Shown here one piece after another: positions 23,010-33,363 of a stretch of 34,197 nucleotides of DNA; positions within the stretch are counted from its first letter, which is position 1, and the number at the start of each line of letters is the position of its first letter. The translations under genes were made by a program, and so were the position numbers. This stretch comes from Actinomycetes bacterium. GTDB taxonomy: Bacteria > Actinomycetota > Actinomycetes > Streptosporangiales > Streptosporangiaceae. The notes under the pieces are model-generated. The model searched no databases. It saw only the letters and a program-made list of their open reading frames with translations, and was not told where the DNA came from. The stretch is taken from NCBI GenBank assembly GCA_025964615.1, contig JAOPYM010000380.1:1-34197 (forward strand), read 5' to 3'.

Positions 23010-23978
23010 TTACTTGCGCTTGTTGATCTCTTCGGTGAGGGCGGGGGCGACCTGGAAGAGGTCCCCGACGACGCCGTAGTCGACCAGGTCGAAGATGGGC
23101 GCCTCGGCGTCCTTGTTGATCGCAATGATCGTCTTCGAGGTCTGCATGCCGGCCCGGTGCTGGATCGCACCAGAGATGCCGACCGCGATGTAGAGCTGCG
23201 GCGACACCGTCTTGCCGGTCTGGCCGACCTGGAACGAGTGCGGGTACCACCCGGCGTCGGTCGCGGCGCGGGAGGCGCCGACGGCCGCACCGAGCGAGTC
23301 GGCGAGAGCTTCGATGACCTTGAAGTTCTCCGCACCGCCGACCCCGCGACCACCGGAGACGACGATGGCCGCCTCGGTGAGCTCGGGCCGCTCGCCCTTC
23401 TCCTGGACGACCTTCTCGACGATCTTCGCGGCCTTGGCGGCGTCGGACAGCACGACGCTCACCTCCTCCTCGACCGGCGAGGAGGGCGAGGCCTCCGGCG
23501 CGGTCGAGTTCGGGCGGACCGCGATGATCGGCGTGCCCTGGCGCACCTGCGAGTGCACGACCGTCGAGCCGCCGAAGATCGACTGCTCTGCCACGAAACC
23601 GTCGGTCAGGCCGATCGCATCCGTGAGCACACCCGAGTTGATCTTGACCGCCAGGCGCCCGGCGATCTCCTTGCCCTCGGCCGTCGCGGAGACGAGCACC
23701 GCGGCCGGGGACTTGTCGGCCACCAGCTGAGCCAGCAGCTCGGCCTTGGGCGCGACGACGTAGTCGGTGAGCTCCGAGGAGGCGGCAACGTAGACCTTGG
23801 CCGCACCGTACTCGGCCAGCTTCTCCTTGGCGCCTTCGTAGCCCGGACCGATCCACACCGCGGCCGCGTCGCCGTGGCGGCGGGCCAGGGTCAGCAGCTC
23901 GAGCGTGACCTTCTTGAGCTCTCCGTCGAGGTGGTCGACGAGGACGAGAATCTCACCCTGCGTTGGTGAAACAGACAC
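23010..23978 (-). CDS. etfA: Electron transfer flavoprotein, alpha subunit
   Basis: EtfA (322 aa) binds FAD in the ETF heterodimer that takes electrons from acyl-CoA dehydrogenases. The C-terminal FAD domain shows [39 protein letters not shown] and [12 protein letters not shown], the standard signature. The N-terminal domain is ordinary for the family. The start is a GTG with GGAGG 7 nt upstream; longer in-frame readings overprint etfB. It lies 13 nt downstream of etfB, so the two are co-transcribed. A family A palindrome follows the stop. Confidence 0.96.
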
Positions 23979-23991
23979 AGCCAGTCCTCCC

Positions 23992-24771
23992 TCAGACGAA
24001 TTTCTTCGAGGCGAGGAAGTCGGCGATCTTGCTGCCGCCGTCCCCCTCGTCGGTGACGATCTGGCCCTTGGCCCGCGGCGGCGCCTCGGCGAAGTCCACG
24101 ACCGTGGTCGCGGAGCCGGCCAGGCCCACCTGCGCGGCGTCGATCCCCAGGTCCGCGAGGGACGGGGCGTCGACCGGCTTCTTCTTGGCCGCCATGATTC
24201 CCTTGAAGGAGGGGTAACGCGGCTCGTTGATCTTCTCGACGACACTCACGACCGCCGGCAGGCTTGCCTCGACCCGGTCGAAACCGTAGTCGGTCTGCCG
24301 CTGGATCCGGATGGTGGAGCCGTCGATCTCGACCTTGTTGGCGAGCGTGACCTGGGACACGCCCAGGCGCTCGGCCAGCATCGCGGCGAGCACGCCGGTA
24401 CGGGCGTCGGTGGATTCCGAGCCCAGGATCACCAGGTCGAATCCGGTCCGCCCGAGCACCTGCTGGATCGCGAACGAGGTCTGCAGCGAGTCGGACCCGT
24501 GCAGGGCGTCGTCGGACAGGTGCACGGCCTTGTCGGCCCCCATCGACAGTGCCTTGCGGATGGTGTCGGCCGCCGTGCTCGGACCCATGGTGAGAATGGT
24601 CACCTCACCACCGTGGGCTTCCTTGATGCGCAGTGCCTCTTCGACCGCGTACTCGTCGAGCTCGTTCATGAGACCGTCTACGGCCTCACGGTCGAGGGTG
24701 CTGTCGCTGGACTTCAACTTACGCTCGGTCGCCGTGTCGGGGACCTGCTTAACGCAGACGACGATGTTCAT
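23992..24771 (-). CDS. etfB: Electron transfer flavoprotein, beta subunit
   Basis: EtfB (259 aa) carries AMP and forms the ETF dimer with EtfA. MNIVVCVKQVPDTATERKL is a typical start. The block LDREAVDGLMNELDEYAVEEAL and the later signature VEASLPAVVSVVEKINEPRYPS (about 174-195) are family hallmarks. Length is normal. It is first in etfB-etfA. A promoter-like pair with a palindrome lies about 120 nt upstream; the downstream enoyl-CoA hydratase and desaturase genes in this window fit a fatty acid context but are not in this operon. Confidence 0.96.
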   Translation of the reverse strand: MNIVVCVKQVPDTATERKLKSSDSTLDREAVDGLMNELDEYAVEEALRIKEAHGGEVTILTMGPSTAADTIRKALSMGADKAVHLSDDALHGSDSLQTSFAIQQVLGRTGFDLVILGSESTDARTGVLAAMLAERLGVSQVTLANKVEIDGSTIRIQRQTDYGFDRVEASLPAVVSVVEKINEPRYPSFKGIMAAKKKPVDAPSLADLGIDAAQVGLAGSATTVVDFAEAPPRAKGQIVTDEGDGGSKIADFLASKKFV

Positions 24772-24890: not shown

Positions 24891-24918
24891 ATGTTACCGG
24901 TCGGTAGCCTCACTACAA
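24891..24918 (-). promoter_or_regulatory. Candidate etfBA promoter with palindromic operator
   Basis: On the minus strand TTGTAG (24918-24913) and TAACAT (24896-24891) are 16 nt apart. TACCG and CGGTA with GT between form a palindrome at 24895-24906 that touches the -10, a repression-type arrangement. It lies 3 nt past the stop of the first kinase gene. Between here and etfB (24772-24890) nothing else is evident. Confidence 0.5.
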
Positions 24919-24921
24919 AAT

Positions 24922-26448
24922 CTACTGGCCCCTGCTGTTGTCGATCAGCTTTCTGAGCTGGTCGTGCAGGCTGCCCAGCTGATCATAGGAGGTCGTGATC
25001 GGGGCCCATCGAGGCTGGTCGGCCCACATGAGGCCCAGCAGCACCAGCGCGATCCCCGCCGCGGACAGCCCGGTGATCATGACCGTGCGCCTGTCCCGCG
25101 CGGCCGCCGACAGCACCCGCACGAGCTGCCGTCGCGGCCCCATCATCAACGGCCCGGCCAGGATCACGTACGCCCAGGCCCCTACTGCGGCCGACGCGAC
25201 GGTCACGTCGTCCGGCGGATTGGTGAGCGCCTCGAGTCCGCTCATCACCAGGGACGCCACGACTCCCGCGTACAGCAGTGAGAACCCGGTGCGCACGAAC
25301 GAGCCCGCCATGCTGCCGGGGAACCGCAGCGGAGCGATCAGCAGGTCCTGCACACCGCGCACCGGAACGCGCCGGGACCGGACGGCCAGGTCCCCGGCAC
25401 GCAGGAACCACGCGGTCGCCACCACCAGCGTGCCGGCCACCGCAGGCAGCTCGACCACCAGGCACACCGCGGCGGCCACCATCAGATAGGCCATCAGCTT
25501 GTACCAGCCGAGATCGACCCGGCCCGCGCCCGGTGGAAGCGGGGTCACCATCGGCGGAGGCGTCACCGGAAGCGGCAGCGGCGTCGCCGAGCCCACCATC
25601 ATCATCGGTGCCGGGGTCAGCGCCCGGGTCTGCGGAACGGGGGTGGGCGCCGGGGACGCGAGCTGGCGCAGCCACCCGCTCAGCTGCTCCGCCGTCGGCC
25701 GCCTGACCGGCTCCCGCGACAGCGCGACCTGGACGCCGCCGCCCAGATCCAGGGGGACCCCGGCGAGATCGGGCTGTCCCCGGATGACCCGGGCCAGCAC
25801 CGCCTCCATCGAGCCGGTACCGAACGGGGACCGGCCGGTGGCCGCGAACGCCACCGTCGCCCCCCACGCGTAGATATCGATGGCCGGCCCGGGAGCCGCG
25901 CCGTCGATGACCTCGGGCGCGAGATAGCCGGGCGTACCGATGATCATTCCGGTCTGGGTGAGGCGGGTGGCGTCGGCGGCGTGCGCGATGCCGAAGTCGA
26001 TCACCACGGGTTCGCCGCTGACCAGCATGACGTTGTTGGGCTTCAGGTCACGGTGCACGACCCCGGCCGCGTGGATGGCCTTGAGCGCGTCCGCGAGCCC
26101 CGCCGCCACCTGGACGAGCAGCTTGCCCGACAGCGGCCCGGTGGCCCGGACCGTGTCGTCCAGCGGGTGCCCGGCGACGTACTGCGTGACGATGTACGGC
26201 TGCTCGCCGTGCAGGTCGGCGTCGATGATCCGCGCCACATACGGGCTGCGGATCCGCTGCATCGTCTCGACCTCGCGCAGCAGCCTGCGGCGGAAGGCAT
26301 GATCGTCGGCGAGCTCCGGCCGGATCACCTTGACGGCCACCTCGCGGCCTGCGTCATCCACCCCTCGGTAGACCACGCCCATCCCGCCCTGGCCGAGCTT
26401 GCCCAGGAGCCGGTACGGGCCGATGTGTTCCATCTCCTCGATGGGCAT
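24922..26448 (-). CDS. Ser/Thr protein kinase with Pro-rich linker and multi-pass C-terminal domain
   Basis: This 508-aa Hanks-type kinase has the glycine loop LGQGGMGVVY (about 18-27), the ATP lysine K40, HRDLKPNN (D134), DFG (151-153) and GTPGYLAPE (171-179), so it should be active. A Pro-rich linker (about 265-308) follows. Residues 313-475 hold about five hydrophobic segments with the markers LGWYK and GPRRQ, and the tail has no PASTA or other known sensor domain. The same layout is found in the next kinase gene (26468-28261). The ATG has GGAAGG 10 nt upstream. It is the third of three tandem kinase genes, 19 nt after the second. The kinase targets are unknown. Confidence 0.93.
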   Translation of the reverse strand: MPIEEMEHIGPYRLLGKLGQGGMGVVYRGVDDAGREVAVKVIRPELADDHAFRRRLLREVETMQRIRSPYVARIIDADLHGEQPYIVTQYVAGHPLDDTVRATGPLSGKLLVQVAAGLADALKAIHAAGVVHRDLKPNNVMLVSGEPVVIDFGIAHAADATRLTQTGMIIGTPGYLAPEVIDGAAPGPAIDIYAWGATVAFAATGRSPFGTGSMEAVLARVIRGQPDLAGVPLDLGGGVQVALSREPVRRPTAEQLSGWLRQLASPAPTPVPQTRALTPAPMMMVGSATPLPLPVTPPPMVTPLPPGAGRVDLGWYKLMAYLMVAAAVCLVVELPAVAGTLVVATAWFLRAGDLAVRSRRVPVRGVQDLLIAPLRFPGSMAGSFVRTGFSLLYAGVVASLVMSGLEALTNPPDDVTVASAAVGAWAYVILAGPLMMGPRRQLVRVLSAAARDRRTVMITGLSAAGIALVLLGLMWADQPRWAPITTSYDQLGSLHDQLRKLIDNSRGQ

Positions 26449-26467
26449 CGCCGGGGAGCCTTCCGGG

Positions 26468-28261
26468 TTAGTTGAGTCCGAACTGGCTGCGAATGCTGGT
26501 CTTCAACTGGTTCAGCGTGGTGCCTTCCTTGGAGAAGCGCAACGGCTGCAGGTCAGGGGTGGACTTGAGCCCGAGACCGAGGAGCAGGGCGGCGCTCACG
26601 GCCACCGCCACCGCCACGATCGCGGCAGGCTCGGGCCGGGGCAGGAACGCCCCCCAGATCCGCGCCATCTGGCGGCGCGGCCCGGTGCTGCCGGGGCCGA
26701 GGAACTGCAGCGCGACGACCGCCATCGCCCCGTAGGAGATCGCCTGGTCGGCCCGCATCGCCGGATGGGCCGCCATCAGCACGAGCACGATGATGGCGCC
26801 CGCGAGCAGCCCGAGCGGCGCCCAGAGGGCCGAGCTGAGCAGCGCCCTGGGCAGCGCGAAGGGGGTCCTGACGAAGGCGCTCACGAAGTCCGCGCCGCCC
26901 CGGTCCCCGCGCCGTACCCGCTTGGACTCGATGGTCTTCGCCGCGCGGTCCATCGCCCGCAGCACCACCACGCCGATCAGGACGACGGCGACGGTCAGCA
27001 CCGGGATGATCGAGGCGAAGCCGAGCACGGCGGCCAGCGCGGCCAGGCTGCACACCTTGTACCAGCCGTACGGCTTGCGCCGCTCCGGCTTCGGCGGTTC
27101 CGGCGGGCGCTCTTGCCGGCGGTGCGGGTCGTACGCCTGCGGTTGCTGCCCGGCCACGTCCCGCCCGCCCTGGTCGGGCCGGGTCTGGGGGGTGTACGGC
27201 TGCGGTTGTGCGTACGGGGGGTAGTCCGGCTGCCGGCGCGGGCGGGCCTGCGGGGTCCGGTACGGCTGCGGGGGCGTGGGTGTGGGGGGCGGCGCGGCGG
27301 GCGGCAGCATTCCCTTGAAGTCGCTGGGCTGCTGGTACGACTGCCGAGGGGCCGGCGGGGGCGCTTGCGGCGGTACGGGGGTGAAGGCCCGGACCGGCGA
27401 GTCCATCCGGGTGTGATCGGTGATCGTGGCGTCGAGATCGATCCGGCGGGCCAGCTGGAGCAGCATCACCGCCGTCGGCCGTTCGGCCGGGTGCCGCGCC
27501 ATCGCCGCCCGGACCAGCGGCAGCATCGCCTCCGGTACCCCGGCGAGATCCGGCTCACCCTGCATGATCTTGTAGAAGATCGACTCGAACGTCCCCGAAC
27601 CGAACGGCGGCCGGCCCGTCGCCGCGTACACCAGAGTGCTCGCCCACGAGTGCACATCGGCCGGCGCACCCGCCTCCTCACCCTCGATGATCTCCGGCGC
27701 CAGATACCCCGGCGTACCGATGACCAGACCGGTCGCCGTCAACCGGGTCGCGTCCATCGCCTGCGCGATACCGAAGTCGATCAGAACCGGCTCGCCGCTC
27801 TCCACCAGCATCACATTGCCCGGCTTGAGATCACGGTGGATCACGCCCGCACCATGGATCGCGGCCAGCGCCGACGCCAGCCCGGTCGACAGCCTGCTCA
27901 GCGCCCGGCCGCGCAACGCACCGTGTTCGAAGATCCACTCCTCGAGCGTGCGGCCCGGCACGAACTGCGTCACGATGTACGGCTTGACCGCCGTGACATC
28001 AGCGTCCAAGATCTCCGCGACATGCGGGCTGTGCACCCGCCGCATCGTGTCGACCTCACGGGCCAGCCTGCGCAGCGCGGTCGCGTCATTCGCGACCTGT
28101 GGCCGCAGCACCTTGATCGCCACCTTGCGGCCCTCGGGATCGGCGGCCAGATGCACGACGCCCATCCCGCCCTCCCCCAGCACCTGGAGCAAGCGGTAGC
28201 GGCCGATGCGGTCCCCGGACGTGTTGACCCCCTTCATCGCGGCCACCCTACCCGTGCTCAT
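26468..28261 (-). CDS. Ser/Thr protein kinase with long Pro/Gln-rich linker and multi-pass C-terminal domain
   Basis: This 597-aa kinase has GEGGMGVV (29-36), K50, HRDLKPGN (D144), DFG (162-164) and GTPGYLAPE. The linker (about 286-397) is very rich in Pro, Gln and Tyr and probably disordered. From residue 399 (GWYK) hydrophobic segments follow to about 565, with GPRRQ (about 527-531) in the same position as in the neighbouring kinase, and a short polar tail. No PASTA repeats are seen. The ATG at 28261 follows the stop of the previous kinase by 2 nt and has AGGAAG 10 nt upstream. An ATG at 28237 with TAGGGTGG upstream is an equal alternative. Confidence 0.92.
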   Translation of the reverse strand: MSTGRVAAMKGVNTSGDRIGRYRLLQVLGEGGMGVVHLAADPEGRKVAIKVLRPQVANDATALRRLAREVDTMRRVHSPHVAEILDADVTAVKPYIVTQFVPGRTLEEWIFEHGALRGRALSRLSTGLASALAAIHGAGVIHRDLKPGNVMLVESGEPVLIDFGIAQAMDATRLTATGLVIGTPGYLAPEIIEGEEAGAPADVHSWASTLVYAATGRPPFGSGTFESIFYKIMQGEPDLAGVPEAMLPLVRAAMARHPAERPTAVMLLQLARRIDLDATITDHTRMDSPVRAFTPVPPQAPPPAPRQSYQQPSDFKGMLPPAAPPPTPTPPQPYRTPQARPRRQPDYPPYAQPQPYTPQTRPDQGGRDVAGQQPQAYDPHRRQERPPEPPKPERRKPYGWYKVCSLAALAAVLGFASIIPVLTVAVVLIGVVVLRAMDRAAKTIESKRVRRGDRGGADFVSAFVRTPFALPRALLSSALWAPLGLLAGAIIVLVLMAAHPAMRADQAISYGAMAVVALQFLGPGSTGPRRQMARIWGAFLPRPEPAAIVAVAVAVSAALLLGLGLKSTPDLQPLRFSKEGTTLNQLKTSIRSQFGLN

Positions 28262-28263
28262 CG

Positions 28264-29154
28264 TCAGCTGGCTTCCTGGCGCTCGCTCCGCTCGCGCGGT
28301 GCTTGGGCCTTGACACGCGACCCAAGCACGTTCCCTGGCGCTCGCTGCTCCTGCGGGGCTTGGGCCGGGTCGCCGCACCACTGCTGGAGCGCCCCTGCGA
28401 ACCACTGTGCCGGAGGCCGCTCCGCCGGGTCACGGCGCAGCGCGAGCTCGAGCAGCGTGCGCAGCGGCTCGGTGACCCCGTCCAGATCGGCCATCCCGCG
28501 CAGGATCCGGAAGCAGACCCCGTGCACGGAACCGGTCCCGAACGGCGGGCGCCCGGTCGCCGCGTACGCCACGGTGGAGGCCCAGGAGAACACGTCGGCG
28601 GGCTGCCCGACCGGCTCGCCCTCGATCAGCTCGGGGGCGAGGTAGGCGGGGGTGCCCACCAGCATGCCCGGCAGGGTCACCTCGTTGACGCCGGCCTCGT
28701 GCGCGATGCCGAAGTCGATGATCAGCGGCGAACCGCCGAGGATCATCACGTTGCCCGGCGCCAGGTCACGGTGCACCACTCCGGCCGCGTGCACGTCCGC
28801 GACCCCCTGCGCGAACTGCCAGGCGAACTGGAGCAGCGCGGGACCGCGGAGCGGCCCGTACGACCGGATGAGGGTACGCAGCGGCGTGCCGGGGACATAC
28901 TGCATCACCGCGTACGGGCGGTCCCCGGACACGTCTCCGCCGATCAGCCGCGCAACGTACGGGCTGCTGACCCTGCCCTGTGCGGCGATCTCCCTGGCCA
29001 GCCTGCGCCGGAAGGCCGGTTCCGCCACGAACTCAGGTCGCAGCTCCTTGACCGCCACGGTGCGCCCCCGCGCATCCACGGCACAGTGCACCACCGCGCT
29101 CGTCCCCGTACCGATCCGCTCCAGCAACCGGTACTCCCCCAGTCGTTCGATCAC
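28264..29154 (-). CDS. Ser/Thr protein kinase, kinase domain only, atypical HRDLA motif
   Basis: The 296-aa protein is nearly all kinase domain: loop IGTGTSAVV (14-22; third Gly replaced by Ala), K36, HRDLAPGN (D130, with Ala at 132 where Lys is usual), DFG (147-149) and GTPAYLAPE. HRDLA is unusual for Ser/Thr kinases, so activity or specificity may differ. It lacks the linker and membrane domain of its two downstream paralogues. The last 30 or so residues (from about 266, including PRERSERQEAS) are encoded by family B repeat DNA, suggesting the original 3' end was replaced. The start is a GTG with no clear ribosome site. It is first of the three tandem kinase genes. Confidence 0.88.
   Translation of the reverse strand: MIERLGEYRLLERIGTGTSAVVHCAVDARGRTVAVKELRPEFVAEPAFRRRLAREIAAQGRVSSPYVARLIGGDVSGDRPYAVMQYVPGTPLRTLIRSYGPLRGPALLQFAWQFAQGVADVHAAGVVHRDLAPGNVMILGGSPLIIDFGIAHEAGVNEVTLPGMLVGTPAYLAPELIEGEPVGQPADVFSWASTVAYAATGRPPFGTGSVHGVCFRILRGMADLDGVTEPLRTLLELALRRDPAERPPAQWFAGALQQWCGDPAQAPQEQRAPGNVLGSRVKAQAPRERSERQEAS
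28277..28368 (+). repeat. Family B dispersed repeat, overlapping the 3' end of a kinase gene
   Basis: Two partial units are seen: 28277-28328 (GGCGCTCGCTCCGCTCGCGC, then GGTGCTTGGGCCTTGACACG) and 28336-28368 (TGGCGCTCGCTGCTCCTGCG, then GGGCTTGGGCCGG). Both lie within the last codons of the third kinase gene on the other strand. Confidence 0.8.
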
Positions 29155-29287: not shown

Positions 29288-30235
29288 TCAGGCTTTGGCC
29301 AGCTGACGGGCGCGGCGTTCGTCGCGGCGGGTCTCGAACTTGGTGGCGGTGGCGTTCAGGCCGACCATGAACTCACCGAGCTCCTCGCGGGCCTTCTCAC
29401 CGTCGCCGGTGAAGTCGGTGCGGTCGAAGACGTTCCACTGCCGCAGGATCGGCGCGACGACCTCGTCGTGGTGCAGGCGCAGGTCATAGATACCGGCGTT
29501 GGCGATGGCGACCGACTTGCGGGTGAAGTTCTCGATCGTGTTGCCCGGCATCTGGAAGTCCTTGACGACCTTGGTGACGGCCTGCATCGCCTGGTCCGGG
29601 GCCACATCGAACGCCGCGGCGATCACGTTCCGGTAGAACAGCATGTGCAGGTTCTCGTCGGCCGCGACGCGGGCCATCATCTGCTCACAGAGCGGGTCGC
29701 CGGAGACCTTGCCGGTGTTGCGGTGCGACACCCGGGTGGCCAGTTCCTGGAACGAGACGTACGCCACGTTGTGCAGCACGCTGTCGCCGTGGGCGGCCTG
29801 GTAGCCGCCCTGCATGTGCGCCATCCGGGCCCGCTCCAGCACGATCGGGTCGATGGCCCTGGTGACCGTCAGGTAGTCGCGGATCACGATCCCGTGCCGG
29901 TTCTCCTCGGCGGTCCACCGGTTGACCCAGAAGCCCCACGGGCCGTCGAAGCCCAGGTTGTCGGCGATCGCCCGGTGGTATCCGGGCAGATTGTCCTCGG
30001 TCAGGAGGTTGACCAGCAGGGCGTCGCGCGACTCCGGAGTGACCTTGGAGTCCCCGGGCTCCCACCCCTCGCCGCCGAGCGGCCCGTCGAAGGTGCGCCC
30101 GTCGCTGTAGGGGACGTACTGGTGCGGGAACCACTCCTTGGCCATCGTCAGGTGCCGGTTGACTTCCCGCTCAGCGACCGGCTCCAGCTCCAGGAGCAGC
30201 TCGATCTGAGTCTTGGGGCGGGAACTGAGAGCCAT
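29288..30235 (-). CDS. Acyl-ACP desaturase (di-iron)
   Basis: This 315-aa soluble fatty acid desaturase inserts a double bond into acyl-ACP (plant-type family, as in mycobacterial DesA). Two E-x-x-H iron motifs are clear: EENRH (E111, H114) and DENLH (E194, H197), with E80 in LLTEDNLPGYH and E164 as the other ligands, so the di-iron site is complete. It contains no membrane segment. The ATG has GAAGGG 9 nt upstream; a longer in-frame reading would extend through the operator and is rejected. It is a single gene, with a strong palindromic operator 96-117 nt upstream. It probably adjusts membrane unsaturation. Confidence 0.94.
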   Translation of the reverse strand: MALSSRPKTQIELLLELEPVAEREVNRHLTMAKEWFPHQYVPYSDGRTFDGPLGGEGWEPGDSKVTPESRDALLVNLLTEDNLPGYHRAIADNLGFDGPWGFWVNRWTAEENRHGIVIRDYLTVTRAIDPIVLERARMAHMQGGYQAAHGDSVLHNVAYVSFQELATRVSHRNTGKVSGDPLCEQMMARVAADENLHMLFYRNVIAAAFDVAPDQAMQAVTKVVKDFQMPGNTIENFTRKSVAIANAGIYDLRLHHDEVVAPILRQWNVFDRTDFTGDGEKAREELGEFMVGLNATATKFETRRDERRARQLAKA

Positions 30236-30330
30236 GCCTGACAACCCTTCGGGACGAGGAGAGGTACGCACACCGCACCTATGACACAGGATGCCCGTCG
30301 TGAGGCGGGTGTTGGTAGCTGGGAGAACCA

Positions 30331-30371
30331 CAACTTACGCCAGCGTAGGTTGAAGTTGAAGGTCTTGACAA
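30331..30371 (-). promoter_or_regulatory. Promoter and 22-bp operator of the desaturase gene
   Basis: On the minus strand -35 TTGTCA (30371-30366) and -10 TACGCT (30347-30342) are 18 nt apart. The palindrome 30331-30352 has arms CAACTTACGC and GCGTAGGTTG around CA, 10+2+10 with one mismatch, and covers the -10. This is a repressor-site layout. The regulator is not encoded next to the gene in this window. Confidence 0.75.
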
Positions 30372-31542: not shown

Positions 31543-32358
31543 TTATCTGTCCAGTCCGAGCACCATCTGGGGTTTGGCGATCACGTGGTCGGCGCGCATC
31601 GGCCGTACCGCGGTGCCGATGGCGAAGAACTCCATGGTGTGCCCACCCCAAATATGATGCAACTGGTCCAGCGCGACCCCCACGATGCCCTCGGCGTGCA
31701 GCTGCTGGCCCTCCGCCTGCATCCGTGCCATCGCCAGCTCCCGCGCGTCGTACAAGGCCTGGGTGTACTCGGGGATCTCCACGTTCTGCCCCATGCTGCT
31801 GAGCACCGAGCCGAGCCGCCGGTGCGCCACGTGGTAGACGCAGGTGCCCATCACCATGCCGAGCGGCGCGTACCCCGCCTGGATCAGGGTCCAGAAGTCC
31901 TGCCCGTTCAGATCCGAGGTGAACGGCTGGTTCTTGTTGTTGCGCCAGCTCTGCGACTCGTCGTCGGCCTTGACGGCGGTCCCGATGGCGATGAACTCGG
32001 CGATGTCGCTGCCGAACTCGCGGAACTCCACCTTCAGCCGGACACCGACGATCCCGTCGGCACCGAGCTGGTCCGCCTCGGCCTCCATGCGGGTCATCGC
32101 CAGTTCGCGGGCGTGGTAGAGCGCCGCCGACATGTTCTGGAGCTCCATGTTCTGGCTCCACCGGCCGATCTGGATGCCCACGTGGTAGATCGAACTGCCG
32201 AGCACCAGCCCGAGCGGCCGGAACCCCGCCTCGCGGACCAGCAGGAACTCGTTCACCGACAGGTCGCTGGTGAACAGTGAACCGGGCTGCCCCGGCTTCA
32301 TCTGGGCCAGCCGGTTCATCGCGTCGGCGGGTACTCCCTGGGCCACGGAATCGGTCAT
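31543..32358 (-). CDS. Protein with two YbjQ-like (UPF0145) domains
   Basis: This 271-aa soluble protein contains two homologous halves (about 27-132 and 145-258). Each starts with FTSDL..., then a GLVLGSSIYHVG/GMVMGTCVYHVA block, a helix with the pattern ARELAMxRMxAE, a G(A)DGIVGVRL-like strand and EFxAIGTAV. These are the marks of the YbjQ/heavy-metal-binding domain family, in which the helix-GA.GVVGV pattern is typical; metal binding is not proven. The ATG has GGAGAG upstream. It lies between a family B repeat and a coupled small gene. A homologue with the same architecture is encoded at 32494-33363. Confidence 0.8.
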   Translation of the reverse strand: MTDSVAQGVPADAMNRLAQMKPGQPGSLFTSDLSVNEFLLVREAGFRPLGLVLGSSIYHVGIQIGRWSQNMELQNMSAALYHARELAMTRMEAEADQLGADGIVGVRLKVEFREFGSDIAEFIAIGTAVKADDESQSWRNNKNQPFTSDLNGQDFWTLIQAGYAPLGMVMGTCVYHVAHRRLGSVLSSMGQNVEIPEYTQALYDARELAMARMQAEGQQLHAEGIVGVALDQLHHIWGGHTMEFFAIGTAVRPMRADHVIAKPQMVLGLDR

Positions 32359-32375
32359 CGTCTCTCCTGCTTTCT

Positions 32376-32491
32376 GCGCTCGCTCCGCTCGCGCGGTGCT
32401 GGACGCTTGACGCGCGGCCTTCCCTCGTCACTCACTCGCTTCGGTCCCTCGCTCCCTCGCTCCTCAGCCCAGGCCATACGCGCCCGAGCAC
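32376..32491 (+). repeat. Family B dispersed repeat, full-length copy
   Basis: Starts GCGCTCGCTCCGCTCGCGCG, continues ACGCTTGACGCGCGGCCTTC, CCTCGTCACTCACTCGCTTC and CCTCGCTCCTCAGCCCAGGC. It fills the gap between two YbjQ-like genes and begins 2 nt past the stop of the upstream one (read from the minus strand). Confidence 0.85.
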
Positions 32492-32493
32492 GC

Positions 32494-33363
32494 TCAAACA
32501 CGCATGATCTTCAGGGCGCGCTGCGGCTGGTGGGTCTTCTGGAACGCCACGACCGCCGTGCCGATGAAGGTCGTCTCGACGGTGTGGTCACGCTGACCCT
32601 CCGTGTACTGGCATTCGCGCTCGTGCACCGTGAAGTCCGCGGTGTCGAGTACGACGCCCTCCGCGCCGGTCCGCGCGGTGTCGATGAGCAGATGGTGCCT
32701 GGCCTCGTTCCTGGTCCTGGCCACCAGGTCGGTCCAGCCGGCGACCTCCTGGTTCGGGGCGTACCTGCCGCCCGACCACTGGGTCCGCCAGTCGTCGTGC
32801 CGGATCCCGATCGAGGAGCCCATCACCAGATCGACCGGCACCCAGCCGGTCTCGATGAGCTTGGCGAAATCCTGCCCGGACAGGTGTGACAGGAACGGCC
32901 GGCCGGGGCGGACATCGCCCTGCGCCCGGATCGCGGTGCCGAAGGCCTGGAACTCCAGGTGGTGGGCGGCACCCATGAACGGCACGACCTCCAGCCGTAC
33001 CCCCACCACCCCGTCACCGCCGAGCGCCGCGCACTCGGCCGCCATCCGGCCCATCGCGGCGTGCCTGGCCTGGTAGAGCGTCTTGATGTACATCCCGTAG
33101 CCGCTCCAGGCGCCCTGCATGCCCGAAGTGATGGTGATCGCGGTGGATGCGGTGAACAGCCCGCCACGGCGCCCGCAGTCCATCCGCCCCCCGTACCACC
33201 AGCCGAGGTTGTGCACGGCGCTGCCCATGACCTGGCCGATCGGCTCGAACCCGGTGGCCTTCAGGGCCGCGAACTCGTTGACCGACAGACTGGAGGTCCA
33301 GGTGTGACCCTCTGCGGCCTGACTCAGCCGGGCCCGTGCGCCCGGTGGCAACTGCTCCGTCAC
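32494..33363 (-). CDS. Second protein with two YbjQ-like domains
   Basis: This 289-aa soluble protein is a paralogue of the one at 31543-32358. The first half has TSSLSVNEFAALKATGFEPI, GQVMGSAVHNLGW, a helix with ARHAAMGRMAAE and LGGDGVVGVRL; it carries an extra loop rich in Gly/Ser. The second half begins LSHLSGQDFAKLIETGWVPV, and its helix/strand is more diverged (EARHHLLIDTARTGAEGVVLD). Function is not known. The GTG start has AAGGGGG 4 nt upstream. It is first of the putative four-gene operon. The 91-bp gap before it (33364-33454) shows no clear promoter. Confidence 0.8.
   Translation of the reverse strand: MTEQLPPGARARLSQAAEGHTWTSSLSVNEFAALKATGFEPIGQVMGSAVHNLGWWYGGRMDCGRRGGLFTASTAITITSGMQGAWSGYGMYIKTLYQARHAAMGRMAAECAALGGDGVVGVRLEVVPFMGAAHHLEFQAFGTAIRAQGDVRPGRPFLSHLSGQDFAKLIETGWVPVDLVMGSSIGIRHDDWRTQWSGGRYAPNQEVAGWTDLVARTRNEARHHLLIDTARTGAEGVVLDTADFTVHERECQYTEGQRDHTVETTFIGTAVVAFQKTHQPQRALKIMRV

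What the first reader, a model, noticed from the sequence alone, without database searches (positions are those of the whole stretch)
24922..27065. Shared polytopic C-terminal domain in two tandem kinases
Both kinase genes encode, after the linker, a block starting GWYK/LGWYK, several hydrophobic segments, an F.RT motif (SFVRTGFS / AFVRTPFA), a GPRRQ motif and a polar tail. PASTA and other known kinase sensor domains are absent. The paired conservation suggests a real, possibly unnamed sensory membrane domain.
Basis: partly seen in the sequence, partly recalled or inferred. Interest (0 to 1): 0.55.

Follow-up and report, generated by a model that had tools for sequence, protein, structure and literature searches.

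The report
Unnamed membrane domain on actinobacterial kinases
Two neighbouring kinase genes share a real, so far unnamed five-helix membrane domain found across a bacterial order; in related species a sister of one of them has lost its kinase activity, or its whole kinase part, while the membrane domain is kept.

Summary
The observation mostly holds. The C-terminal ~200 residues of both kinases are homologous (28% identity, BLASTP 3e-7; 0 of 1000 class-preserving shuffles as good) and match no named Pfam, NCBIfam or PDB family. One listed motif fails: the two 'F.RT' strings do not align. AlphaFold2 gives a confident model (pLDDT 91), read as five membrane helices. A profile hits 101 of 101 order genomes examined and, strongly, 19 of 119 others of the class. 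Apart from cut or broken genes it sat on a Ser/Thr kinase in every locus read, in the order usually just upstream of etfBA, with one exception. New: a sister lineage of gene 1 is a pseudokinase in 43 of 55 named loci (Actinomadura/Spirillospora), and in four Actinoallomurus-type loci only a 219-residue membrane protein remains. One lineage thus lost catalysis by two routes while keeping the membrane part. Best reading: a sensor-and-assembly module of receptor kinases, with gene-1-type proteins as membrane co-subunits of the intact gene-2 kinase. Pairing, signal and target are inferred.

The parts
24925..25512 (-). membrane domain of kinase gene 1 (K1; residues ~313-508), K1a type
   Evidence: homologous to gene 2 domain; profile hit in own genome E 1.1e-45; falls in clade K1a, sister of the clade that holds the pseudokinases
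26471..27067 (-). membrane domain of kinase gene 2 (K2; residues ~399-597)
   Evidence: AlphaFold2 pLDDT 91.1, pTM 0.84; profile hit E 1.5e-65
27008..27070 (-). K2 domain helix 1 (read as TM1)
   Evidence: model residues 4-24
26909..27004 (-). K2 domain helix 2 (read as TM2 and cytoplasmic extension, LRAxDxA..RR), beginning at the invariant turn proline
   Evidence: model residues 26-57; P26 100%, R41 and D44 94% over 72 rows
26768..26866 (-). K2 domain helix 3 (read as TM3)
   Evidence: model residues 72-104
26699..26752 (-). K2 domain helix 4 (read as TM4)
   Evidence: model residues 110-127
26645..26698 (-). GPGxxxPRRQxxR loop/helix, predicted cytoplasmic
   Evidence: R135, R136, R140 invariant over 72 rows; stretch 128-149 has mean 4.25 K/R against 0.31 D/E
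26564..26635 (-). K2 domain helix 5 (read as TM5)
   Evidence: model residues 149-172
26471..26563 (-). predicted outside tail with conserved prolines and a short helix
   Evidence: P175 and P179 99% over 72 rows; helix at model residues 189-200
25675..26415 (-). K1 protein kinase domain (all catalytic motifs present)
   Evidence: Pfam Pkinase 6.8e-43, residues 12-220, and PK_Tyr_Ser-Thr to residue 256; motifs intact
27455..28198 (-). K2 protein kinase domain (all catalytic motifs present)
   Evidence: Pfam Pkinase 1.1e-42, residues 22-269; motifs intact
28264..29154 (-). K3, third tandem kinase, 296 aa, without the membrane domain; HRDLAP in place of HRDLKP
   Evidence: Pfam Pkinase 9.8e-37; motif letters
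23992..24771 (-). etfB, downstream neighbour conserved in most order loci
   Evidence: Pfam ETF 8.7e-45; a kinase or domain gene lies upstream on the same strand in 85 of 85 loci with etfB in view, within 500 nt in 82
23010..23945 (-). etfA (approximate start)
   Evidence: Pfam ETF_alpha 6.7e-37
29288..30331 (-). acyl-ACP type fatty acid desaturase, upstream neighbour
   Evidence: Pfam FA_desaturase_2 4e-73; the substrate type is recalled from the family, not tested

Best explanation
The block is one autonomous five-helix membrane domain that serves as the sensor and assembly module of a family of actinobacterial receptor Ser/Thr kinases. Kinase and basic loops face the cytoplasm; a short proline-containing tail faces outside (predicted). 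Gene 2 (K2) is the conserved catalytic receptor. Gene 1 and its sister lineage are membrane co-subunits that probably assemble with K2 through the shared domain. In the window gene 1 still looks catalytically competent. In Actinomadura the sister gene is a dead kinase, and in Actinoallomurus-type genomes only the membrane domain remains. The most likely signal is a membrane or lipid property, read by the helices and tail and passed to the kinase; the gene neighbourhood (fatty acid desaturase, ETF, enoyl-CoA hydratase) points to fatty-acid metabolism as the output. Shown by computation: shared domain, predicted fold plan, distribution, neighbourhood, loss of catalytic motifs with retention of the domain, dN/dS below 1. 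Inferred: hetero-assembly, the signal, the target.
For: Homology of the two domains, and of the K2 and K1b domain profiles (hhalign 98.3%, E 1.5e-14). Confident model with eight helices, and the same helix order for the stand-alone version (pLDDT 84.5, pTM 0.69). Positive-inside pattern: mean 6.5 and 4.25 K/R in the two predicted inner loops. 101 of 101 genomes of the order examined have it; 19 strong hits in 119 other-class genomes, 18 of these read and all on kinases. Of 55 named loci, K2 keeps all catalytic motifs in all 50 where they can be read, while K1b is a pseudokinase by its motif letters in 43, partly degraded in 3, intact in 1, kinase-less in 4 and not seen in 4. The pseudokinases form one clade (100/99) and the stand-alone proteins another (100/100) inside the K1 clade (98/91). 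dN/dS of K1b is 0.22-0.71 over 12 pairs. A desaturase lies beside the kinases in 41 of 56 window-type loci.
Against: No ligand, dimer or substrate data. Window gene 1 is of the K1a type, a sister of the K1b lineage that lost catalysis, so the co-subunit role is transferred by homology. The whole neighbourhood, including nifS, MFS and TetR genes, is syntenic in many loci, and etfB has its own conserved promoter-like element, which weakens the functional link to ETF. In the other-class loci and in one other family of the order the domain is not near etfBA (20 of 20 loci), and no desaturase or ECH is in view there. In the rest of the order no desaturase is in view (0 of 35 stretches). In the pseudokinases shown, most of the conserved basic loop between helices 2 and 3 is gone as well, so the domain is not kept whole there. 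The membrane part is not consistently more constrained than the dead kinase part. The tail of window K2 itself is net basic, although the 72-row mean is net acidic.
Confidence: 0.5

Rival explanations
1. The domain is only a membrane anchor that keeps the kinases at the membrane; the conserved loops serve insertion and packing.
For: Very little predicted outside mass; strongly basic inner loops as in ordinary topology signals; low identity at distance, 14-32% between window K2 and the 20 most distant members; the helix 2-3 loop is largely lost in the pseudokinases shown.
Against: Conserved residues that topology does not need (turn Pro, PRRQxxR, PxxxP tail; PSFxPxY tail in K1b); a kinase-less version kept as its own gene in four Actinoallomurus-type loci, where an anchor would have nothing to anchor; occurrence in several families of the class.
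Confidence: 0.25
2. The domain is a small transporter, flippase or enzyme regulated by the fused kinase, and the stand-alone form is that activity freed of its regulator.
For: Stand-alone form exists; five helices plus conserved charged loops; fatty-acid neighbourhood.
Against: Apart from R41 and D44 at the inner end of helix 2, no polar residue conserved at 90% or more lies well inside the predicted membrane helices; most conserved residues sit in loops, turns and tail. No structural match to a transporter stands out (best VIA-align Z 5.5, Foldseek best E 0.5; inconclusive).
Confidence: 0.12
3. The pseudokinases and stand-alone domains are decaying genes, and the retained membrane domain has no separate role.
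For: Stepwise degradation series; one K1a remnant of 80 aa in L123; one frame-broken K1b in L096; loss of most of the helix 2-3 loop in the pseudokinases shown.
Against: 43 of 55 loci keep the pseudokinase, its membrane domain seen over at least 110 profile positions in 39 of these (the other four are cut by a contig end or frame-broken); dN/dS below 1 in 12 of 12 pairs; stand-alone genes of identical 219-aa length in 4 loci, the other three 70-81% identical to L122.
Confidence: 0.08

Closest known systems
PASTA-type receptor kinases (PknB/Stk1)
   Same: N-terminal Hanks-type kinase, proline-rich linker, C-terminal membrane part; NCBIfam PknB_PASTA_kin matches the kinase and, in K2, the linker
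   Different: no PASTA repeats and no large outside domain; five predicted membrane helices instead of one (the single helix of PknB is recalled)
DesK, five-helix membrane sensor histidine kinase of B. subtilis (PMC8301901; start of the abstract in the listing and found passages seen)
   Same: five transmembrane segments joined to a kinase; DesK controls expression of a fatty acid desaturase, and here a desaturase gene lies next to the kinases
   Different: Ser/Thr kinase, domain at the C terminus, no response regulator, no sequence relation shown; the link to the desaturase is position only
Actinobacterial pseudokinase families ActPs1, ActPs2 and ActPs3 (review PMC12599244; abstract, sections 6, 7, 9 and found passages read)
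   Same: K1b has changed catalytic residues and lacks the region around helix G, as about 60% of ActPs1 do; ActPs2 and ActPs3 often have C-terminal transmembrane regions
   Different: the review links many ActPs1 proteins to a PQQ domain, ActPs2 to an HRD-to-HRN change and an activation-loop extension of ~250 residues, and ActPs3 includes MviN; K1b has mostly HG[E/A/D], a shortened activation segment and this membrane domain. Their profiles were not available, so membership stays open

Membership tests
Hanks-type bacterial Ser/Thr kinase (Pfam Pkinase) | Pkinase domain above the curated cut-off | tested here: met
   K1 147.4, K2 146.7, K3 127.2 bits against cut-off 31.7
Hanks-type bacterial Ser/Thr kinase (Pfam Pkinase) | catalytic motifs (beta3 Lys, aC Glu, HRD, Asn, DFG) | tested here: met
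   window K1 and K2 carry all; K3 carries these too but has Ala for the Lys of HRDLKP
PASTA receptor kinase (PknB/Stk1) | C-terminal PASTA repeats | tested here: not met
   no PASTA hit in Pfam; NCBIfam PknB_PASTA_kin aligns to its positions 9-224 (K1) and 7-336 (K2) of 563, at 194 and 209 bits against a cut-off of 450
any named Pfam or NCBIfam membrane domain | a consistent match in the C-terminal ~200 residues | tested here: not met
   window K2 domain: no Pfam family at E <= 1 and one NCBIfam match at E 0.047, 12.9 bits against a cut-off of 321. Other members: Pfam matches in 1-3 of 61, best E 0.0019; NCBIfam in 1 of 49 each, best E 0.00099; Pfam in 1 of 47 K1b each, best E 0.03. Cut-offs are not printed for those members
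DesK-like sensors | histidine kinase output and DesR response regulator | tested here: not met
   the output is a Hanks-type kinase; analogy only
[quoted passage not shown]
   beta3 Lys to Arg 43 of 43; HRD Asp replaced in 32 of 43; DFG Asp kept in 42 of 43
ActPs1 pseudokinases (for the K1b relatives, not the window protein) | place beside Act1 in the bacterial kinase tree | not testable with these tools
   profiles of that classification are not held
a fold known in the PDB | significant structural match to the domain | tested here: inconclusive
   Foldseek: no match at E <= 0.001 for either model; VIA-align best Z 5.5 over 82 residues for the K2 model

The most novel reading that the evidence does not exclude
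An order-wide bacterial receptor-kinase complex in which an unnamed five-helix membrane domain is the assembly and sensing unit. An always-intact kinase (K2) is paired with a co-receptor that evolution has stripped of catalysis in two ways: a pseudokinase so divergent that the four tested score under Pfam's kinase cut-off (Actinomadura), and a bare membrane domain (Actinoallomurus). It would be a prokaryotic parallel to dead co-receptor kinases of animals, reading a membrane-lipid signal next to fatty-acid genes.
Probability: 0.33. Interest if true: 0.7.

Novelty: new variant of a known kind. Interest (0 to 1): 0.52.

Why it matters
It gives a defined, foldable, unnamed domain to a group of receptor kinases for which the searched profile libraries name only the kinase part. 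It also exposes a lineage of actinobacterial pseudokinases whose kinase part, in the four tested, scores under Pfam's Pkinase cut-off. The intact, degraded, dead and kinase-less versions in related, often cultured species make it directly testable what the membrane part of a bacterial receptor kinase does without catalysis.

Tried and rejected
Named-domain explanation: rejected after Pfam, NCBIfam and PDB sequence searches. Chance hydrophobic similarity: rejected. Known fold: Foldseek (both models) and VIA-align (K2 model only) gave weak, mutually unrelated matches; this does not show that the fold is new. A regulon read from the element upstream of etfB: the exact pattern occurs once in the window's genome, upstream of etfB, so no regulon was seen. 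Literature: pseudokinase with Actinomadura (one unrelated paper), threonine protein kinase with Streptosporangiales (none), electron transfer flavoprotein with kinase and Actinomadura (none), etfB with kinase and actinomycetes (none), five-transmembrane/polytopic kinases (8 listed), ActPs1/2/3 (8 of 23 listed), pseudokinase with actinobacteria and transmembrane (8 listed) and a six-term domain-architecture search (none). I opened two of the listed papers, in part; in titles, abstract starts and what I read I saw no description of this domain or of K1b. The library holds only openly licensed papers. The single-sequence search found 59 of the 65 order genomes it looked at, fewer than the profile (101 of 101 in another draw).
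Full report
What is there. The minus strand holds a tandem of three kinases: K3 (28264-29154, 296 aa), K2 (26468-28261, 597 aa) and K1 (24922-26448, 508 aa), followed by etfB and etfA. Gaps are 2 nt between K3 and K2, 19 nt between K2 and K1 and 150 nt between K1 and etfB, read from the coordinates. Upstream are a fatty acid desaturase (FA_desaturase_2), a short-chain dehydrogenase, two YbjQ-like proteins and an enoyl-CoA hydratase. K1 and K2 carry complete kinase motifs; K3 has Ala at the Lys of HRDLKP.

Is the shared block real? BLASTP of the two C-terminal blocks gives 28% identity over 145 columns, E 3e-7. Shuffles that keep the pattern of residue classes reach a mean score of 73 and a maximum of 131 against 134 observed, 0 of 1000 as high. 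The GWYK start, LRAxDxA, GPRRQ and the tail prolines align. The two F.RT strings do not: they sit at different alignment columns.

Is it named? hmmscan of the full proteins lists only kinase-type families as matches to their kinase parts (of the best 25 of 26-27 for K1 and K2 were shown). Scanning 61 domain members singly against Pfam gives scattered weak matches, at most 3 members for one family, best E 0.0019. NCBIfam with 49 members gives 1 member each, best E 0.00099; Pfam with 47 K1b members gives 1 member each, best E 0.03. A profile of 61 members finds one PDB sequence at E 0.53, which I take as chance.

Fold. With 72 sequences (window plus named loci) AlphaFold2 gives pLDDT 91.1 and pTM 0.84 for the K2 domain: helices 4-24, 26-57, 64-70, 72-104, 110-127, 132-145, 149-172 and 189-200. 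I read five of these as membrane helices from length and hydropathy; no topology predictor was available. Predicted inner loops carry on average 6.5 and 4.25 K/R, and the tail 2.6 K/R against 4.6 D/E, although the tail of window K2 itself is net basic. Most positions conserved at 90% or more lie in turns, loops and tail; L40, R41, D44 and A93 lie in helices. Foldseek finds no PDB match at E <= 0.001; VIA-align's best Z is 5.5. This is inconclusive about fold novelty.

Distribution. A first single-sequence search found the domain in 59 of 100 genomes: 59 of the 65 of the order, none of the 35 outside it. A profile of 61 domains then found it in 101 of 101 genomes drawn from the order. In a class-wide draw 32 of 128 genomes matched at E <= 0.01: 9 of the window's family, and among the 119 others 19 strong matches (E <= 2e-13) and 4 with only weak matches (E 0.001-0.007) that I do not count; 76 of the genomes without a match are not itemised in the answer. 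A phylum-wide draw with a broader profile gave 4 of 119: the window's own genome, two of the same class already seen, and one marginal 55-column match at E 9e-4. I fetched 18 of the 19 strong other-class loci (the nineteenth match lies at a contig edge) and two from another family of the order. In 20 of 20 the domain sits at the C terminus of a kinase with intact motifs, and none has etfB in the stretch.

Neighbourhood. Of 116 loci read, five genomes being fetched twice (judged by equal contig lengths), 85 have etfB in view. In all 85 a kinase or domain gene lies upstream of etfB on the same strand, 59-1049 nt away and within 500 nt in 82; I did not check for small genes in between. Of the 31 without etfB, 20 are the other-class and other-family loci, 5 are short or reach a contig end (L039, L082, L084, L119, L123), and 6 are order members with a different neighbourhood (L040, L041, L043, L046, L047, L052). 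The desaturase is next to the kinases in 41 of 56 window-type loci (in 4 it lies elsewhere, in 11 none is in view, some stretches being cut upstream), in 0 of 35 other stretches of the order and 0 of 20 other loci. nifS, MFS and TetR genes beyond etfBA are conserved in many loci too, so synteny alone is weak evidence of function.

Fate of the K1 gene. In 55 named loci, K2 keeps every catalytic motif in all 50 where the kinase part can be read; in 5 it is cut off by the contig end. The gene in the K1 position differs. In 43 loci (Actinomadura, one Spirillospora) it is, by its motif letters, a pseudokinase: beta3 Lys to Arg 43 of 43; aC Glu unaligned (34) or Asp (9); HRD Arg to Gly 42 of 43; HRD Asp replaced in 32 of 43; the Mg-binding Asn replaced 43 of 43; DFG Asp kept in 42, its Gly changed to Ala in 19. 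In the five pseudokinases aligned the activation segment and the region of helix G are deleted. Four that I scanned score 18.7-22.1 bits with Pfam Pkinase, under the cut-off of 31.7; one of them (L079) just passes the cut-off of the phosphotransferase family APH, 24.0 against 23.2. Three loci are partly degraded (L098, L107, L113), one has all motifs (L114), four have a kinase-less 219-aa protein (L118, L122, L123, L125), and four have no K1b in view (L075, L076, L105, L126). The membrane domain of the pseudokinases shown has lost most of the loop between helices 2 and 3, while the stand-alone protein keeps one. That may mean the loop couples to the kinase, but it also shows that the domain is not kept whole.

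Tree. I built a tree of 127 of 183 domain rows; the subset keeps all degraded and stand-alone rows, 13 of 39 pseudokinases and a sample of the rest. Window K1 groups with L075, L076 and the intact kinases of L118 and L125 (K1a, 100/99). Pseudokinases (100/99), stand-alone proteins (100/100), degraded ones and L114 form the sister group K1b (100/98). K1a and K1b together have 98/91 support; the branching inside K1b is partly weak (88/48). So the window's gene 1 is a sister, not an ancestor, of the lineage that lost catalysis, and the loss came by two routes in K1b: point decay in one clade, removal of the kinase part in another. Over 12 pairs, Nei-Gojobori dN/dS of K1b is 0.22-0.71 (kinase-like part 0.15-0.66; membrane part 0.18-0.86), below 1 throughout. 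The estimate is crude for GC-rich genes, and one pair holds the frame-broken L096. The stand-alone protein has the same helix order in its own model (pLDDT 84.5, pTM 0.69), and the K1b profile matches the K2 profile at 98.3% probability.

Reading. A domain that survives the death or removal of its kinase in one lineage, while the neighbouring kinase with the same domain stays intact, most simply acts as a membrane partner of that kinase. I infer pairing through the shared domain. A membrane-lipid cue is suggested by the five-helix, almost loop-less architecture (as in DesK, PMC8301901, passages) and by the desaturase, ETF and enoyl-CoA hydratase genes nearby. Both steps are inference. The link to ETF is weakened by a conserved promoter-like element upstream of etfB, which suggests separate control.

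Known relatives. A 2025 review (PMC12599244) describes actinobacterial pseudokinase families; about 60% of ActPs1 lack helix G. I could not test membership. Whether K1b is a new family or a branch of ActPs1 is open, and I do not claim it as new on that ground.

Noticed in passing
window 24891-24907 (minus strand) and upstream of etfB in other loci: A palindrome-like element CTACYNNNNRGTAACAT lies between the last kinase and etfB: by eye in 13 of the 15 upstream stretches printed (L118 differs in one base, not seen in L049). The exact pattern occurs once in the window's genome. It looks like an operator over a promoter.
   Followed up: partly
L118:10200-10261, and upstream of the stand-alone gene in L122, L123, L125: A conserved stretch with GGTARTGT lies within about 20 bases before the ATG and no obvious ribosome site is seen, suggesting its own promoter and a leaderless message.
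   Followed up: no
L077, L078, L080, L085, L102, L106, L121: Seven Actinomadura loci carry an extra 800-854 aa protein with two kinase domains between K2 and the pseudokinase, with Asn at the Lys of HRDLKP in at least one of them.
   Followed up: partly
window 28264-29154 and its counterparts: K3 has Ala, Ser or Thr instead of the Lys of HRDLKP in 36 of 38 proteins counted.
   Followed up: partly
L114: A record titled Glaciihabitans sp. (Microbacteriaceae) carries a Thermomonosporaceae-type locus and groups with them in the tree; probably a mislabelled metagenome bin.
   Followed up: no
window 31543-33363: Two adjacent proteins with YbjQ_1 domains; among the stretches fetched the pair is in view only in L035/L076 and L039/L123.
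   Followed up: no
L049:7169-8470, L054:11201-12589, L069:11529-12974: In much of the order a third kinase without this domain, but with its own hydrophobic C-terminus in the three printed, sits before etfB.
   Followed up: no
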